Assembly (NCBI GenBank): GCA_945906965.1
Contig: CAMDRP010000022.1
Span: 1-34,303 of the forward strand
Length of the DNA: 34,303 bases
Origin: Opitutus sp. GAS368
GTDB lineage: Bacteria > Verrucomicrobiota > Verrucomicrobiia > Opitutales > Opitutaceae
Direction of reading: 5' to 3'
Under the pieces are notes generated by a model that worked only from the letters and a program-made list of their open reading frames with translations, searched no databases and was not told where the DNA came from. The translations under genes and the position numbers were made by a program. The stretch's first letter is position 1; each line of letters opens with the position of its first letter. This document shows positions 1,540 through 34,303 of this stretch, piece by piece.

Positions 1540-3123
1540 TTAAGCGGCGCGGTAAGTAGATTTAAACCACGGGGACTTGGCGCGCTTTTTCACGCCGCTG
1601 CCTTTGTTGGCGGCGAGGTGTTCGAGGATCTTGAACGCGAGTTCGGCGGCGTCGGGCTGGCCGACTTGGGCGGCGAGTTGCTCGGCGGTGAACTGGGCCT
1701 CGGGGGCGGCCTTGAGCGCGGCGGTGAGTTTGAGTTTCAACGCGATGACGCCACCGGCGGCTTTCTTGCCGGCTTCGACACCGGGTTGGTGGTAAGCGTT
1801 GATGCCGACGAGCGAGGCGTAGAGGCCGACGACGCGTTCGTAGAGCGCGATCAACATGCCGAGCGAGCGCGGCGAAACATCGGGCAACGTGATCGTGACG
1901 GAGTGGCGGTCTTTCTCGCTGAGGGCGTCGCGGGTGCCGAGGTAGAAGCCTTGGAGGAAATCGCCGGCGGTGATGCCGGGTTCGACTTCGAGGGCGGTCT
2001 TCGCATCGCGGTCTTTGAGGACTTCGATGAAGGTGACGAAGAAGTTATTCACGCCGTCGCGGAGTTGTTGGACGTAGGCGTGTTGATCGGTGGAACCTTT
2101 GTTGCCGTAGACGGCGATGCCTTGGTTGACGACGTTGCCCTTGAGGTCGTGTTCCTTGCCGAGCGACTCCATTACGAGTTGCTGGAGGTAACGGGAGAAC
2201 AAGAGCAGGCGGTCCTTGTAGGGGAGGACGACCATGTCTTTGGTGCCGCGGCCGTCGGTGGCGTAGAACCACATGAGCGCGAGGAGCGCGGCGGGGTTTT
2301 GGCCGACGGTGGTGTGGCGCGTGACGACGTCCATCGCGGCAGCGCCATCGAGCAGGGCTTGAATGTCGAGGCCTTGGAGCGCGGCGGGGAGCAAACCGAC
2401 GGCGGACAGTTCAGAGGTGCGGCCGCCGACCCAGTCCCACATGGGGAAACGGGCGAGCCAGTTTTGGGCGAGGGCGGTTTGTTCGAGCTTTGAGCCGGCG
2501 CCGGTGACGGCGACGAAGTGCTTCGTGAAATCAAGACCCGCGGCTTGGAAAGCGGCGGCTGCTTCGAGTTGGCCGTTGCGGGTTTCGGCGGTACCGCCGG
2601 ATTTGGAGATGACGACTACGAGGGTTTTGGCGAGTTGGCCGCGGAGCCCTGCGAGCACGTAGTCAATGCCGTCGGGGTCGGTGTTGTCGAAGAAGGCGAC
2701 GGCGAGTTTGTCTTTGCGCGGCGAGCCGAGGGCGTGGTGGACGAGTTGGGGGCCGAGGGCGGAGCCGCCGATACCGATCACGAGGAGGTTTTTGAATTTG
2801 CCCTTGGGGCCGGCGATGGCGCCGGAGTGGACGCGCGCGGCGAAGTCTTTGATCGCAGCGAGCGTGGCGGAAATCTCGGCGGCGAGGGCGGGCGTGGGCG
2901 CGAGCTGGGGCGCGCGGAGCCAGTAGTGGCCGACCATGCGGTTCTCATCGGGATTGGCGATGGCGCCTTTTTCCAAGGCGGCCATGTCGGCGAAGGCCTG
3001 TTGCATCGCGGCGTCTTTGGCGGCGAGAAAATCGTCGGGGAACGGGATGCGGCTGATGTCGAGCGCGAGGCCGAGATCGGCGTGGTGATAATAAAGCGAT
3101 TTAAAGCGGGACCAGGTGGACAT
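1540..3123 (-). CDS. pgi: Glucose-6-phosphate isomerase
   Basis: A 527-residue protein with the two SIS folds of phosphoglucose isomerase. Visible signatures are [20 protein letters not shown] near 112, [12 protein letters not shown] near 145, [16 protein letters not shown] near 170 (the sugar-phosphate SKSGGT loop), KEHDLKGN and [18 protein letters not shown] in the second half. It interconverts glucose 6-phosphate and fructose 6-phosphate in glycolysis and gluconeogenesis in the cytoplasm. The sequence style matches the cyanobacterial/verrucomicrobial-type enzyme rather than E. coli Pgi. The ATG at 3123 lies inside copy A of a 77-bp intergenic repeat, so the 5' leader is repeat-derived. No Shine-Dalgarno is present; the leader is pyrimidine-rich. 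Likely first gene of a three-gene unit ending at the terminator at 547-572. Confidence 0.97.
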
Positions 3124-31080: not shown

Positions 31081-31286
31081 GTTTTTTTGCCCGCTCCGCT
31101 TAATGGCGGAAAAAATAAACGGGGTATGCACTTAACTGAATCAGTGCGTTCCATCACTTATGCTTACACAAGCCTTCTCCGATCCAAAAAATGGCTATCG
31201 GGCTCCTTTGGATCCCTCATTCCGCTCCTAAGATACTATCCACAGTCTGCTTAAGGACCAATATCCGGCCTCCTGGTTTGTTTGAC

Positions 31287-31322
31287 TTGTCACAGATAAG
31301 CTCACATCTGTAGATTATCTGT
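31287..31322 (+). promoter_or_regulatory. Promoter and probable AbiEi operator
   Basis: A -35-like TTGTCA (31287-31292), an 18-base spacer and a -10-like TAGATT (31311-31316) lie just before abiEi, so the transcript would start at or within a few bases of the ATG at 31324. The spacer contains ACAGAT (31292-31297) and its inverted copy ATCTGT (31306-31311), and ATCTGT recurs at 31317-31322. AbiEi antitoxins of characterised abiE systems bind inverted repeats in their own promoter, so this is the expected operator. The rest of 31081-31286 shows no gene and only a weak hairpin near 31096. Confidence 0.55.
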
Positions 31323-31323
31323 T

Positions 31324-31950
31324 ATGGAATACGCCAACATCCTTCGCCACTATGGGGCGCTCGGATTCTTTGAACTCCCGGACCTTCTCACCTTCACCGG
31401 CGAGAAAAAAAGGACCGTGCTCCAAACACTCTATCGATGGAATAAGAAGGGTTGGATCATCGCTATCCGTCGTGGCTTCTACGCGATCCCCGAGGACCTC
31501 GCAAAAAACCCGCTAACCGCAGAGCGAGCCGCCAACCATGTCAAAAAGGCGACCTACGTTACCGGATTATGGCGCCTCAACCAACTTGGGCTGATTCCAG
31601 AAGGTGTCACCGTCGTCACCAACGCGACACGAGACAATCCCGCCGAATTCGAAACACCGATCGGACGGTTTGCCTACCAACACATCCAAACACAAGGGTT
31701 CTTCGGCTACGAAGAGAAACCTGACGGCGGAGGCATCAATGTCCAGGTGGCGACACCGGAAAAGGCACTGCTCGATTTCTTCTGGTGGAAAAATGTAGAA
31801 TGGACCGACACCGAATTCGAGCGTTGGCGCATTCAGGATCCATTCCATCGCCTCAACCACAAACGGCTAAAAGAATTCGCCAAGCGCTGGGATCAGCCTC
31901 GGCTCATTCGTGCAGTCGAAAACGTCACGGCTTTTCTTAACGCCGCCTAA
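31324..31950 (+). CDS. abiEi: AbiEi-type antitoxin / transcriptional regulator
   Basis: A 208-residue protein. The N-terminal winged helix (ILRHYGALGFFELPDLLTFT, then VLQTLYRWNKKGWIIAIRRG, FYAIPED) is the AbiEi antitoxin-type DNA-binding domain. The C-terminal part (AANHVKKATYVTGLWRLNQL, VQVATPEKALLDFFWW) is the domain that in known systems is needed to oppose the toxin. AbiE is a phage-abortive-infection and type IV toxin-antitoxin system in which AbiEi represses the operon and counteracts AbiEii without binding it. Three bases separate it from abiEii. Lower GC and different codon use than the housekeeping neighbours suggest acquisition by transfer. Subfamily assignment is from motifs only. 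Confidence 0.85.
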   Translation: MEYANILRHYGALGFFELPDLLTFTGEKKRTVLQTLYRWNKKGWIIAIRRGFYAIPEDLAKNPLTAERAANHVKKATYVTGLWRLNQLGLIPEGVTVVTNATRDNPAEFETPIGRFAYQHIQTQGFFGYEEKPDGGGINVQVATPEKALLDFFWWKNVEWTDTEFERWRIQDPFHRLNHKRLKEFAKRWDQPRLIRAVENVTAFLNAA

Positions 31951-31953
31951 AAC

Positions 31954-32973
31954 GTGAACCTAGACCATATTGTTCAAGTTACAAAGGGCGTCCCGCTCAC
32001 GTCACGTATGAACGTGGCCAAAGAAGCCCTCCAGCGCTATCTCTTGGCGGCGCTGCAACGGGAAGGTCTGCTTACGCATGCGGCCTTTATCGGAGGCACG
32101 GCTCTCCGTCTCCTGCATGAACTTCCCCGTTACTCGGAGGATCTCGATTTCATCTGGACGAACAAAAACGCTGAATCGCAACTCGCCGAATGGACCAAAT
32201 ACCTGCCCAAAGCCATTAGAGCGTTGGGCGCATTACCAGAAATCGACGCCAAAAATAAGAGCAAGGATGACGCAAAAGTCCAAAAGCGAGGCCACTCGAT
32301 CGTCATCAGCGCCACCGCCCCCGCATTCACTGCGTTTGCGCCACACGGCATCCAAATCAGGTTCGACATCGATTTGGATCCGCCGGCGCAAACGCAGCCT
32401 GAATCAAAGACGATGCGACTACTAGGCGGCCAAATAGAGATACCTTCTCTCACACTGCCGTCACTCATGGCCGGCAAACTCCACATCCTGCTCACCCGGC
32501 CCGATAGAGAGAAGGGACGCGATTGGTTCGACTACACCTGGTATCGGCAAAAAAAGATTTTGCCGAACATTCCGATGCTCGAAAGCGCGATCCAGCAGAC
32601 AGCAAATGGGCCTGACGCTCATTACTGGACGTCATATCTCCGCCAACGCGCCAAAACGGTTCAATGGATCAACGTCCGAAGTGACGTAAAGCCATTCCTA
32701 GAAAATCCGGCAGACTCTGATTCACTCAACGAAGTGAAAATTGACCACGCCACTCCCTATCCCGACTTCGCGGAGATTGAGGCCGAATTCTTCAAGCAGA
32801 AGGACCAACATCCGCTCTTCTTAACAAAGAATCCGGTGATGTTAGACATCCACCAAGCCGCCCTTGAAGGAGACGTGGCGGCAATCGACCTTGAACGAGC
32901 GATCGTCGCGCTCAGACCCCAGATGCCACCTCCGCCTCCTAAAGCACAGGGGCCGTCGATGGACGACTTCTAA
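31954..32973 (+). CDS. abiEii: AbiEii-type toxin (nucleotidyltransferase fold)
   Basis: A 339-residue protein starting at GTG 31954, three bases after abiEi. The nucleotidyltransferase core is clear: FIGGTALRLLHELPRYSEDL with DFIW (G47-G48-T49, and D63/D65 as metal ligands). RFDIDLDP supplies a third acidic residue, and GKLHILLTRPDREKGRDWFD with YTWY is the conserved lysine/RD block. Characterised AbiEii proteins transfer nucleotides (GTP-dependent) and arrest growth. The tail is low-complexity (RPQMPPPPPKAQGPSMDDF) and overlaps the 3' end of the convergent IS1595-type transposase gene by 35 bases. The tail may have been altered by the insertion, but the catalytic core is complete. Confidence 0.87.
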   Translation: MNLDHIVQVTKGVPLTSRMNVAKEALQRYLLAALQREGLLTHAAFIGGTALRLLHELPRYSEDLDFIWTNKNAESQLAEWTKYLPKAIRALGALPEIDAKNKSKDDAKVQKRGHSIVISATAPAFTAFAPHGIQIRFDIDLDPPAQTQPESKTMRLLGGQIEIPSLTLPSLMAGKLHILLTRPDREKGRDWFDYTWYRQKKILPNIPMLESAIQQTANGPDAHYWTSYLRQRAKTVQWINVRSDVKPFLENPADSDSLNEVKIDHATPYPDFAEIEAEFFKQKDQHPLFLTKNPVMLDIHQAALEGDVAAIDLERAIVALRPQMPPPPPKAQGPSMDDF

Positions 32974-33829
32974 CGACCTTTTTCGGTATCGGTTTATGTT
33001 CTACCGACTGCTGAAGCAGCCGGTAGAACAATAACCCACGAGACTTGGACGACCGACGGTTAAACCGGAAGACAAATTCATCCAAGTAGGGCTGAAGGTA
33101 ATCCTTCCCCACTGAACCTTGGTGAGTCCCCATGATCCATCGCTTCAGCAACGAAGCCACGCGATGGGCCTTCGGCAAAAGATTGAGCCCCACCTCCGGC
33201 GTATGCCGGGAAACCGTGTGGTCATAGCCACACGAAGTTAGTCCTTCGTAACTCGCTAATCCGTCCGTAACGACGTTGCTGCATCGCTCGACGTTATCCG
33301 TCACGAAGTCCAACAAAGTTTCGGCCTTCGCATCCGGAATCACCGCCAAGCGTATTCGGCCGATCCGCCGCCCGCGCACCTCGGCGGCAATACCGACCAG
33401 CGTCTTGCCGGCGGCACCGCGACCTCGTTTCCCCGGCTTTACACCTCCAACAAAGGTCTCGTCTACCTCGACCTCCCCGTTGAGCTTCTCACGTCCAGGG
33501 ATCACCATGGCCCGCCGCATTCGATGGAGCCACTCCCACGCCGTGTGGTAGCTTCCAAAGCCCATCGCACGTTGGAGGCCTAAGGCACTCATCCCATTCT
33601 TCTGTTCGCACACGTGCCATGCTGCATCGAACCACGTTTTCAAAGGAAACCGTGTCCGATGCAGCAACGTCCCTTCCACCAAGCTATGCTGGTGCCAGCA
33701 CTTGGCGCACCGCCATAGGCACCGCGCCGTTACCCAATATTTTGTCCCTCCACACTTGGGACAAACAAATCCGTCCGGCCACCTCAAATTACCCAAGAAC
33801 CGCATACAATCCACGTTCGACGCAAACAT
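32939..33829 (-). CDS. IS1595-family transposase (ISXO2-like), N-terminally interrupted
   Basis: From ATG 33829 there are 296 residues. A zinc ribbon comes first (FVCPKCGGTKYW, then WRCAKC), followed by the ISXO2-like DDE domain: GEVEVDETFVGGVKPGKRGR with the first Asp, KTLVGIAAEVRGRRIGRIRL, VTDGLASYEGLTSCGYDHTV with the second Asp, and GTHQGSVGKDYLQPYLDEFV, FRFNRR. It would cut and paste its IS. The natural start is farther upstream: codons before the ATG read NRREFDA, a family-typical lead-in, until an IS605-type right end interrupts at 33857. A TGA in frame lies about 40 bases farther on, so the first few residues are missing and the gene is probably inactive or weak. It converges on abiEii. 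Confidence 0.9.
   Translation of the reverse strand: MFASNVDCMRFLGNLRWPDGFVCPKCGGTKYWVTARCLWRCAKCWHQHSLVEGTLLHRTRFPLKTWFDAAWHVCEQKNGMSALGLQRAMGFGSYHTAWEWLHRMRRAMVIPGREKLNGEVEVDETFVGGVKPGKRGRGAAGKTLVGIAAEVRGRRIGRIRLAVIPDAKAETLLDFVTDNVERCSNVVTDGLASYEGLTSCGYDHTVSRHTPEVGLNLLPKAHRVASLLKRWIMGTHQGSVGKDYLQPYLDEFVFRFNRRSSKSRGLLFYRLLQQSVEHKPIPKKVVRSRPSTAPVL
32998..33029. repeat. Long hairpin inside the transposase 3' coding region
   Basis: GTTCTACCG (32998-33006) and CGGTAGAAC (33021-33029) are exact inverted copies, and inside them CTGCT-GA-AGCAG continues the pairing, giving about 14 paired positions with one mismatch and a 2-base loop. It lies 25 bases after the abiEii stop codon, so on the plus strand it could stall transcription leaving abiEii, although no T-run follows. 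Confidence 0.7.
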
Positions 33830-33865
33830 AGCGTCGAACTCTCGCCGATTCTTCTGTTGACCTCC

Positions 33866-33922
33866 TCCCGGCCCTAAAGAGCCGGGATTCCCTCAAGCAG
33901 CCCGCCTGCGAAGCAGGCGGGC
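33866..33922 (-). ncRNA. Candidate omega-RNA (TnpB guide RNA) 3' scaffold
   Basis: Two strong stem-loops lie at the 3' end of tnpB: 33900-33922 (GCCCGCCTGC-GAA-GCAGGCGGGC, perfect 10 bp, overlapping the last tnpB codons) and the right-end hairpin at 33866-33887. In IS605-type elements the omega-RNA is transcribed across this region and ends with a guide taken from the DNA just past the element end, here from 33856 downward. Structure and position fit; expression is not shown, and the 5' limit cannot be placed. Confidence 0.45.
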
Positions 33923-34303
33923 GCGTTGAGGAGTGGTTCCCGCTTCACCGGAGCCTGAAGCTCCTCCACGGACAGTGGCGGCAAGTCCTGCCGACATTAT
34001 ATTCTGAGCGGCGATCACATCGGCATGGCCGGAGTGAGCGCATTTAACGCAGCGGAAAACAGCCCGGGAGGGGCGGTTTTCTGGGCTGATATGCCCGCAG
34101 GACGGGCAGGTCTGGGACGTATAGGCTGGGTTCACCCGCCGCACTTCCCCGCCGAGCCAACGAGCTTTGTATTCGAGTTGGCGGAGGGTTTCCGCATGAC
34201 CCTGTTCAAGCAGCGAGCGGTTGAGGCCGCGCTTTGCGGCGACGTTCTGGCCAGGGGCATCAACCGTGCCTTTGGCCGAACGCGTCATATTACGTAGCGC
34301 CAA
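33893..34303 (-). CDS. tnpB: TnpB (IS605 OrfB-type RNA-guided nuclease), C-terminal part only
   Basis: An open frame of 136 residues enters from the right edge of the window; its first codons are not a real start. It holds the C-terminal region of TnpB: GLNRSLLEQGHAETLRQLEY with KARWLGGEVRRVNPAYTSQT, the zinc ribbon C-P-S-C-G-H ... F-R-C-V-K-C, then GHADVIAAQNI, which carries the last RuvC-like Asp. TnpB is an omega-RNA-guided DNA endonuclease of IS200/IS605 elements. Zinc-ribbon cysteines and the RuvC-III Asp are present, so this half looks functional. The basic C-terminal tail (QRARLLRRRAA) is encoded by a 10-bp hairpin of the presumptive omega-RNA. N-terminal half not visible. Confidence 0.92.
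   Translation of the reverse strand: MALRNMTRSAKGTVDAPGQNVAAKRGLNRSLLEQGHAETLRQLEYKARWLGGEVRRVNPAYTSQTCPSCGHISPENRPSRAVFRCVKCAHSGHADVIAAQNIMSAGLAATVRGGASGSGEAGTTPQRARLLRRRAA

What the first reader, a model, noticed from the sequence alone, without database searches (positions are those of the whole stretch)
33830..33922. TnpB guide predicted to target uninterrupted copies of the IS1595 transposase gene
In known IS605-type elements the omega-RNA guide is the DNA just outside the right end. Here that DNA (from 33856 downward, beginning CAGAAGAATCGGCGAGAG) is the transposase 5' coding region. TnpB would then cut intact IS1595 copies and could favour spread of the IS605-type element into them, a mobile element parasitising another and limiting its host IS.
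Basis: inference. Interest (0 to 1): 0.6.

Follow-up and report, generated by a model that had tools for sequence, protein, structure and literature searches.

The report
Jumping gene nested inside another
A small IS605-type mobile element sits in the front of another mobile element's transposase gene, so its predicted guide RNA spells that gene; no second, uninterrupted copy was found for it to cut, so this looks like one ordinary chance insertion.

Summary
An IS200/IS605-type right end (…GGAGGAGGTCAA) stops at 33857, and the predicted TnpB guide (33856 downward) is the 5' coding sequence of an IS1595 transposase. Six further copies end at the same base, each with a different flank. The insertion directly follows a codon that is TAY in 72 of 81 IS1595 homologues; 4 of 5 related left ends follow TTAY.

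The wider claim fails. The assembly holds no uninterrupted copy: the only other IS1595 is 62% identical, and no second guide match lies within 2 mismatches. None of 81 homologues has fewer than 6 mismatches in 18. One of 22 sampled right ends points into IS1595. This is a single nested insertion whose guide would serve ordinary donor-site retention, if TnpB is intact; its N-terminus is off the contig.

The host element is more interesting. It appears to carry an AbiEi/AbiEii toxin-antitoxin pair. Five of seven close relatives carry another toxin-like or candidate-defence gene within paired repeats, a sixth probably does; 0 of 13 at 50-54% identity do.

The parts
33857..34303 (-). Right part of an IS200/IS605-type element: 3' part of tnpB and right end. 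The rest lies beyond the contig end.
   Evidence: 96-99% identical tnpB/RE stretches in the same genome; the six that reach the right end stop at the same base
33893..34303 (-). TnpB C-terminal 136 residues (zinc finger, RuvC-III Asp in HADVIAAQNI); upstream part not in the contig
   Evidence: Pfam PF07282 E 3.8e-23; reading; catalytic role of the residue recalled
33857..33891 (-). Right-end hairpin and terminal TCAA of the element
   Evidence: Right-end string of sister copies found once, 0 of 100 shuffles; shared by sister copies
33844..33966 (-). Predicted omega-RNA scaffold (HgcC-like) running into the guide
   Evidence: Rfam RF00062 30.8 bits, below gathering 50, E 7.3e-5; fold z -3.77
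33839..33856 (-). Predicted 18-nt guide CAGAAGAATCGGCGAGAG, which is IS1595 transposase coding sequence
   Evidence: Position by analogy with ISDra2 reRNA (PMC8612924, passages); sequence; only match within 2 mismatches in the genome
32939..33856 (-). IS1595 transposase gene, 5' end cut off by the insertion; first in-frame ATG at 33829
   Evidence: PF12762 E 6.1e-32 and PF12760 E 2e-11; N-terminal comparison
31121..31139 (+). Terminal inverted repeat at the far end of the host IS1595 transposon (GGGGTATGCACTTAACTGA)
   Evidence: The repeat of relative L055 matches here once with 2 mismatches; 1 of 100 shuffles has any match; relatives' repeats. The other end is not assembled.
31324..31950 (+). 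AbiEi-like antitoxin, cargo of the IS1595 transposon
   Evidence: PADLOC AbiEi E 2.7e-38; Pfam AbiEi_4 only below its cut-off (17.6 vs 25 bits)
31954..32973 (+). AbiEii-like toxin (nucleotidyltransferase), cargo of the IS1595 transposon
   Evidence: PF08843 E 3e-26; PADLOC AbiEii E 3.6e-54

Best explanation
An IS200/IS605-type element inserted once, by single-strand peel-and-paste at a TTAY target, into the 5' coding end of the transposase gene of a single-copy IS1595-family transposon that appears to carry an AbiEi/AbiEii pair. As at every insertion of this kind, the omega-RNA guide is then the adjacent host DNA, here the transposase gene. If TnpB is intact, its target is the empty site re-formed when the element is excised, so that the element is copied back. 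The IS1595 transposase has lost its own start and promoter region and is probably crippled. Shown: the boundary, the reading frame, the target codon position, no second site within 2 mismatches in the assembly. Inferred: the TTAY at this very site (the left end is off the contig), guide production, TnpB activity, transposase inactivation.
For: Right end shared with six sister copies that have different flanks. Related left ends in this genome and genus: 4 of 5 follow TTAY (TTTAC, TTTAT, CTTAT, TTTAT), one does not (C107). The insertion lies exactly after a codon that is TAY in 72 of 81 IS1595 homologues. For the sister element split between C119 and C36, joining the flanks restores an open host frame with TTTAC kept and no duplication. 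PMC8612924 (passages): TAM equals the insertion target, the guide is about 16 nt of flanking DNA, the proposed target is the donor joint, and IS608 uses TTAC. No other guide match within 2 mismatches. 22 distinct flanks, 1 in IS1595; Pfam names no transposase among ORFs from 19 of the 21 others.
Against: The left end of this copy and the TnpB N-terminus are not in the assembly, so the target motif at this insertion and the activity of this TnpB are untested. A sister copy (C136) has a 5'-truncated tnpB whose reading frame breaks at its start, so this one may be defective too. One of 5 related left ends lacks TTAY. Only 12 of 81 homologues carry the whole TTAY; the other TAY sites have another base in front. 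A second flank of the 22 (L192) adjoins a mobile-element fragment, an inverted piece of tnpB, which the Pfam scan did not name.
Confidence: 0.85

Rival explanations
1. One reading: the IS605-type element exploits IS1595, its TnpB cutting uninterrupted IS1595 copies and driving its own spread into them.
For: The guide is IS1595 coding DNA and the only copy of this IS1595 found in the genome is occupied. TnpB gene drive between identical plasmid copies has been reported (PMC11870625, passages including part of the abstract).
Against: No second target within 2 mismatches in the genome; homologues at least 6 of 18 mismatches away; 1 of 22 right-end flanks in IS1595; no right end of this type found by pattern in the 80 IS1595 loci (scanned).
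Confidence: 0.04
2. The insertion is a relic: this tnpB copy is truncated or frameshifted, or no omega-RNA is made, and nothing is targeted. (This can be true together with the best explanation of how the insertion arose.)
For: The C136 copy is broken; no assembled copy of this subtype in the genome shows a TnpB N-terminus; the TnpA hits are C36/C119, which belong to a sister element, a C13 frame with two stops, and C112.
Against: The window part of tnpB is open and keeps the zinc finger and RuvC-III Asp; C29 and a copy in G002 keep an open frame with GLDVGV and AEDLAL motifs; the RNA scaffold folds well. Missing N-termini may only reflect contigs breaking in the repeat.
Confidence: 0.35
3. 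The insertion re-wires IS1595: tnpB read-through drives a shortened transposase from ATG 33829, keeping or raising its expression.
For: tnpB and tnp read in the same direction; the frame is open from the element end into tnp and an ATG lies 27 nt inside. The zinc ribbon is matched from profile position 4.
Against: The right end offers no ATG, GTG or TTG in this frame before 33829, and the N-terminal EFDAMF stretch seen in relatives would be lost in part. Guide processing would cut this transcript. No expression data.
Confidence: 0.1
4. Assembly artefact: the repeat was joined to IS1595 by the assembler.
For: The contig ends 447 bases beyond the junction, inside a repeat with several copies.
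Against: The junction is at the exact element end and at the position of a TAY codon; the element stretch is not identical to any other copy compared.
Confidence: 0.04

Closest known systems
IS200/IS605 family with TnpB and omega/reRNA (ISDra2; IS608 for the TTAC target)
   Same: TnpB C-terminus with zinc finger and RuvC-III Asp, structured right end, no target duplication at the sister insertion, TTAY left-flank motif in 4 of 5 related left ends, guide by position
   Different: TnpB N-terminus, tnpA and left end of this copy not seen; target is TTAY, not the TTGAT of ISDra2 (PMC8612924, passages)
TnpB donor-joint retention and gene drive (PMC8612924, PMC11870625; passages)
   Same: The guide would match the empty version of the same site
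   Different: No multi-copy target was found here, so there is nothing for a drive to act on
IS1595-family elements with passenger genes ('transporter IS')
   Same: IS1595 transposase (PF12762, PF12760), IS1595-type repeat, extra genes between transposase and repeat
   Different: Cargo here is AbiEi/AbiEii. ISsaga (PMC3129680, passages) cites Siguier 2009 for IS with passenger genes, a paper I did not look up and know only from that citation
Transposons with toxin-antitoxin or defence cargo (Tn3 family, PMC7157771; Tn7-like, PMC8649781; search listings and abstract starts only)
   Same: Toxin-antitoxin or defence genes carried by a transposon
   Different: Those are Tn3 and Tn7-like elements, not IS1595

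Membership tests
IS200/IS605-type element with TnpB | TnpB-like protein | tested here: met
   PF07282 E 3.8e-23 on the visible part; N-terminal part not in the contig
IS200/IS605-type element with TnpB | Fixed right end with hairpin, recurring at different sites | tested here: met
   Six further copies end at the same base
IS200/IS605-type element with TnpB | Insertion 3' of a short fixed target, no target duplication | tested here: inconclusive
   Met for the sister element C119/C36 and TTAY in 4 of 5 related left ends; the left end of this copy is not assembled
IS200/IS605-type element with TnpB | Y1 transposase TnpA or mobilisation in trans | tested here: inconclusive
   TnpA in the genome at C36/C119 belongs to a sister element; none linked to this copy
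Omega-RNA-guided nuclease | Omega-RNA covering the right end plus guide | tested here: inconclusive
   HgcC model full length but below threshold, fold z -3.77; transcription not testable
Omega-RNA-guided nuclease | RuvC triad intact | tested here: inconclusive
   Only the third acidic residue lies in the window; sister C29 shows all three motifs (motif roles recalled)
IS1595 family transposon | IS1595 transposase domain and zinc ribbon | tested here: met
   PF12762 and PF12760
IS1595 family transposon | Paired terminal inverted repeats | tested here: inconclusive
   One repeat at 31121-31139; the other is beyond the contig, and the only other match in the assembly within 3 mismatches is C107 at 3
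TnpB system dedicated to targeting IS1595 | Guides or insertions enriched in IS1595 genes | tested here: not met
   1 of 22 flanks
TnpB system dedicated to targeting IS1595 | Other IS1595 copies with matching target and TAM | tested here: not met
   None within 2 mismatches in the genome; 0 of 81 homologues with fewer than 6 mismatches

The most novel reading that the evidence does not exclude
A clade of IS1595 transposons in Opitutae-type bacteria moves exchangeable toxin-antitoxin and defence-type genes. Here an IS605-type element has grounded the AbiE-bearing one, and its TnpB, programmed by that insertion, acts as a locus-made guard that destroys any incoming uninterrupted copy of the same transposon.
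Probability: 0.08. Interest if true: 0.6.

Novelty: new member of a known kind. Interest (0 to 1): 0.25.

Why it matters
It is a clean case of a guide that spells another mobile element's transposase only because the insertion landed there, and a reminder that guide equal to flank needs a base rate before it is read as targeting. The host element points to something less ordinary: a narrow IS1595 clade whose members carry different toxin-like or candidate-defence genes in one slot, which would be a small, countable system for asking how simple transposons swap defence cargo.

Tried and rejected
Looked for an uninterrupted copy of this IS1595: own genome by protein and DNA, 188 other genomes by DNA (partial matches at 66-69% identity plus shorter stretches), plasmids (none), GTDB genomes and IMG/VR by protein (best about 70% and 52%; one search kept the best 80 of 291, and both say that records very near the window's genome may be left out). 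Rejected as targets. Phage and E. coli records were not searched.

Searched related genomes for the guide with up to 3 mismatches: 165 of 189 genomes match; by eye the counts per genome are like those of the reversed-pattern control, but I did not total them. The listing was cut, so exact matches in unlisted rows are not excluded. An exact TTAY + 14-nt match in IMG/VR (L206) lies in a contig stretch with no IS1595 similarity.

Tried to find the missing left half of the insertion through the IS1595 repeat (only C107, 3 mismatches) and through tnpB and tnpA: not found in the assembly.

One search lists 7 of 84 IS1595 loci with more than 400 bp between transposase and repeat; L114 rests on a 12-base chance-like pair and is not counted as cargo. 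In 11 of the 84 no repeat pair was found. In one search, 81 of 84 loci were used; L082, L127 and L135 were dropped because they lie too near a contig end, and some rows are near-copies from one genome. In one search, ORFs came from 19 of 21 flanks; L189 and L183 gave none of the set length. The right-end pattern allowed 5 mismatches, so the 22 ends include diverged relatives. The identity row for L094 is not used, because its transposase is frameshifted. Short IS1595 fragments (such as G032:C78, G391 and G393) were not examined for cargo.

Structure prediction was not run: the window holds only part of TnpB. PMC11656645 was opened (passages) and not used.

Full report
What was claimed.

The observation. 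The window is one whole contig of a draft genome (3.26 Mb, 190 contigs, 96.8% complete) and ends inside the element. On the minus strand the TnpB C-terminus (33893-34303; PF07282) is followed by a hairpin and GGAGGAGGTCAA ending at 33857. Six other copies in the genome, 95-99% identical over 133-135 nt, end at the same base and continue into different DNA. The sequence from 33856 downward is in frame with the IS1595 transposase (PF12762 and PF12760). Rfam's HgcC model covers 33844-33966, running 13 bases into the flank, at 30.8 bits, below its gathering score of 50; the stretch folds better than all 200 shuffles (z -3.77).

The target site. The left end of this copy is not assembled. Related left ends in this genome and genus follow TTTAC (C36), TTTAT (G006:C46), CTTAT (C19) and TTTAT (C72); a fifth (C107) follows CTG. 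The G006:C46 copy is an internal-deletion form whose right 220 bases are 88% identical to the window element, so it is the nearest left end available. For the sister element split between C119 and C36, joining the flanks restores an open host frame with TTTAC kept and nothing duplicated. In 72 of 81 IS1595 homologues the codon just before the guide-equivalent position is TAC or TAT; 12 of 81 have the full TTAY. The insertion therefore lies where a TTAY-specific element could have landed in this gene. PMC8612924 (passages) reports that the TAM equals the insertion target, that about 16 nt of flanking DNA form the guide, that the donor joint is the proposed target, and that IS608 uses TTAC.

Are there copies to cut? 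In this genome the only other IS1595 found (C74) is 62% identical and differs at the site and at the base before TAC. Apart from the window's own site no match to the 18-nt guide lies within 2 mismatches; four more lie at 3, against three within 3 for the reversed control. A DNA search of 188 other genomes gave partial matches at 66-69% identity plus shorter stretches. Among 81 IS1595 homologues the best guide match at the aligned place has 6 mismatches of 18, and no match within 3 mismatches lies anywhere in the loci then held except the window's own site. The single exact TTAY + 14-nt match in IMG/VR shows no IS1595 similarity. Up to 3 mismatches, 165 of 189 genomes have some match, by eye much as the control does; that listing was cut.

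Is IS1595 a preferred home? Twenty-two distinct right-end flanks were collected, 11 from this genome and 11 from its genus and family; one, the window's, lies in IS1595. ORFs from 19 of the 21 others gave 25 listed Pfam families, among them amidase, GlgC, BipA, Tex, sulphate permease and glyoxalase, and no transposase. A direct comparison shows that one of the 21 (L192, G012:C410) runs into an inverted fragment of tnpB of the same element type (about 80% identical over 176-182 nt), so 2 of 22 adjoin mobile-element sequence. In the 80 IS1595 loci fetched from GTDB genomes no right end of this type was found (loci, pattern scan).

How it most likely works. One insertion at a TTAY site gave TnpB, if intact, a guide that matches the empty version of the same site, which serves retention after excision. 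TnpB can also act as a gene drive among identical plasmid copies (PMC11870625, passages including part of the abstract), but that needs several copies and none were found. The transposase has lost its own start; where a start is visible in relatives it lies about 13-19 codons upstream of the ATG at 33829. It is probably crippled. Whether this TnpB is intact cannot be tested here: one sister copy (C136) is broken and two others (C29, G002:C25) are open as far as they run.

The host element. A relative's IS1595 repeat matches the window once, at 31121-31139, with 2 mismatches (1 of 100 shuffles has any match). Between it and the transposase lie AbiEi-like and AbiEii-like genes (PADLOC E 2.7e-38 and 3.6e-54). 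Their G+C is 54% against 62% for the window. Eight elements with near-full-length transposases at least 62% identical were examined, this one included. With both repeats mapped: YhcG/DUF1016 (C74), a PIN domain (L052), an AAA/DUF234 ATPase (L054), KilA-N (L055) and HipA (L094, whose transposase is frameshifted); the window has AbiE with one repeat seen; L053 has a type IIG restriction gene next to the transposase but no second repeat found; L057 has no cargo. Toxin or defence here rests on Pfam names (PIN, HipA, YhcG) and on PADLOC candidate models (YhcG, KilA-N, ATPase), not on tests. Thirteen loci at 50-54% identity have 10-79 bp between transposase and repeat, so no cargo, though several of their repeat pairs are weak. 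Of 84 loci scanned, 73 had a repeat pair and 66 of these have at most 132 bp there. Two betaproteobacterial loci also carry extra genes (L104 DUF3800; L125 DUF29 and smaller ORFs). IS with passenger genes are known (PMC3129680, passages, citing a 2009 paper that I did not look up). Searches for IS1595 or IS together with passenger, antitoxin, Abi, cargo, defence or restriction terms listed no paper whose title or shown abstract start describes such an IS1595 cargo clade. Toxin-antitoxin pairs in Tn3 transposons (PMC7157771) and defence cargo of Tn7-like transposons (PMC8649781) appear in those listings. Apart from PMC11092175 (passages) and PMC3129680 the listed papers on this point were not opened.

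Verdict. The finding is a correct reading of a nested insertion with an over-extended conclusion. The guide story is the default for this kind of element. The cargo-bearing IS1595 clade deserves its own look.

Noticed in passing
31121-33856: Host IS1595 transposon appears to carry an AbiEi/AbiEii pair between its repeat and its transposase; cargo and transposase genes converge and overlap by 35 bases (32939-32973).
   Followed up: partly
L002, L052, L054, L055, L094, L053: Close IS1595 relatives carry a different toxin-like or candidate-defence gene each in the same slot: YhcG/DUF1016, PIN, AAA/DUF234 ATPase, KilA-N, HipA, and probably a type IIG restriction gene.
   Followed up: partly
L193 (G000:C107) 1902-3024: A degenerate IS1595-like repeat (3 mismatches) beside a Fic gene, followed by a truncated IS605-type left end that lacks TTAY.
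   Followed up: no
L011 (G000:C19) about 1230-1583; L190 (G006:C46): Short internally deleted derivatives that keep both ends of the IS605-type element; they look like non-autonomous copies.
   Followed up: partly
L192 (G012:C410) about 1526-1710: A diverged right end of this element type directly followed by an inverted fragment of tnpB, so a rearranged or doubly hit copy.
   Followed up: partly
L034/L035 (G000:C119 and C36): Sister IS605-type element with tnpA and tnpB split over two contigs; joining its flanks restores an open reading frame in the host gene.
   Followed up: yes
32990-33040: A strong palindrome inside the 3' end of the transposase gene; Rfam reports only sub-threshold miRNA models there on both strands.
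   Followed up: no
L104, L125: Betaproteobacterial IS1595 copies with extra genes (DUF3800; DUF29 and smaller ORFs) before the far repeat.
   Followed up: partly
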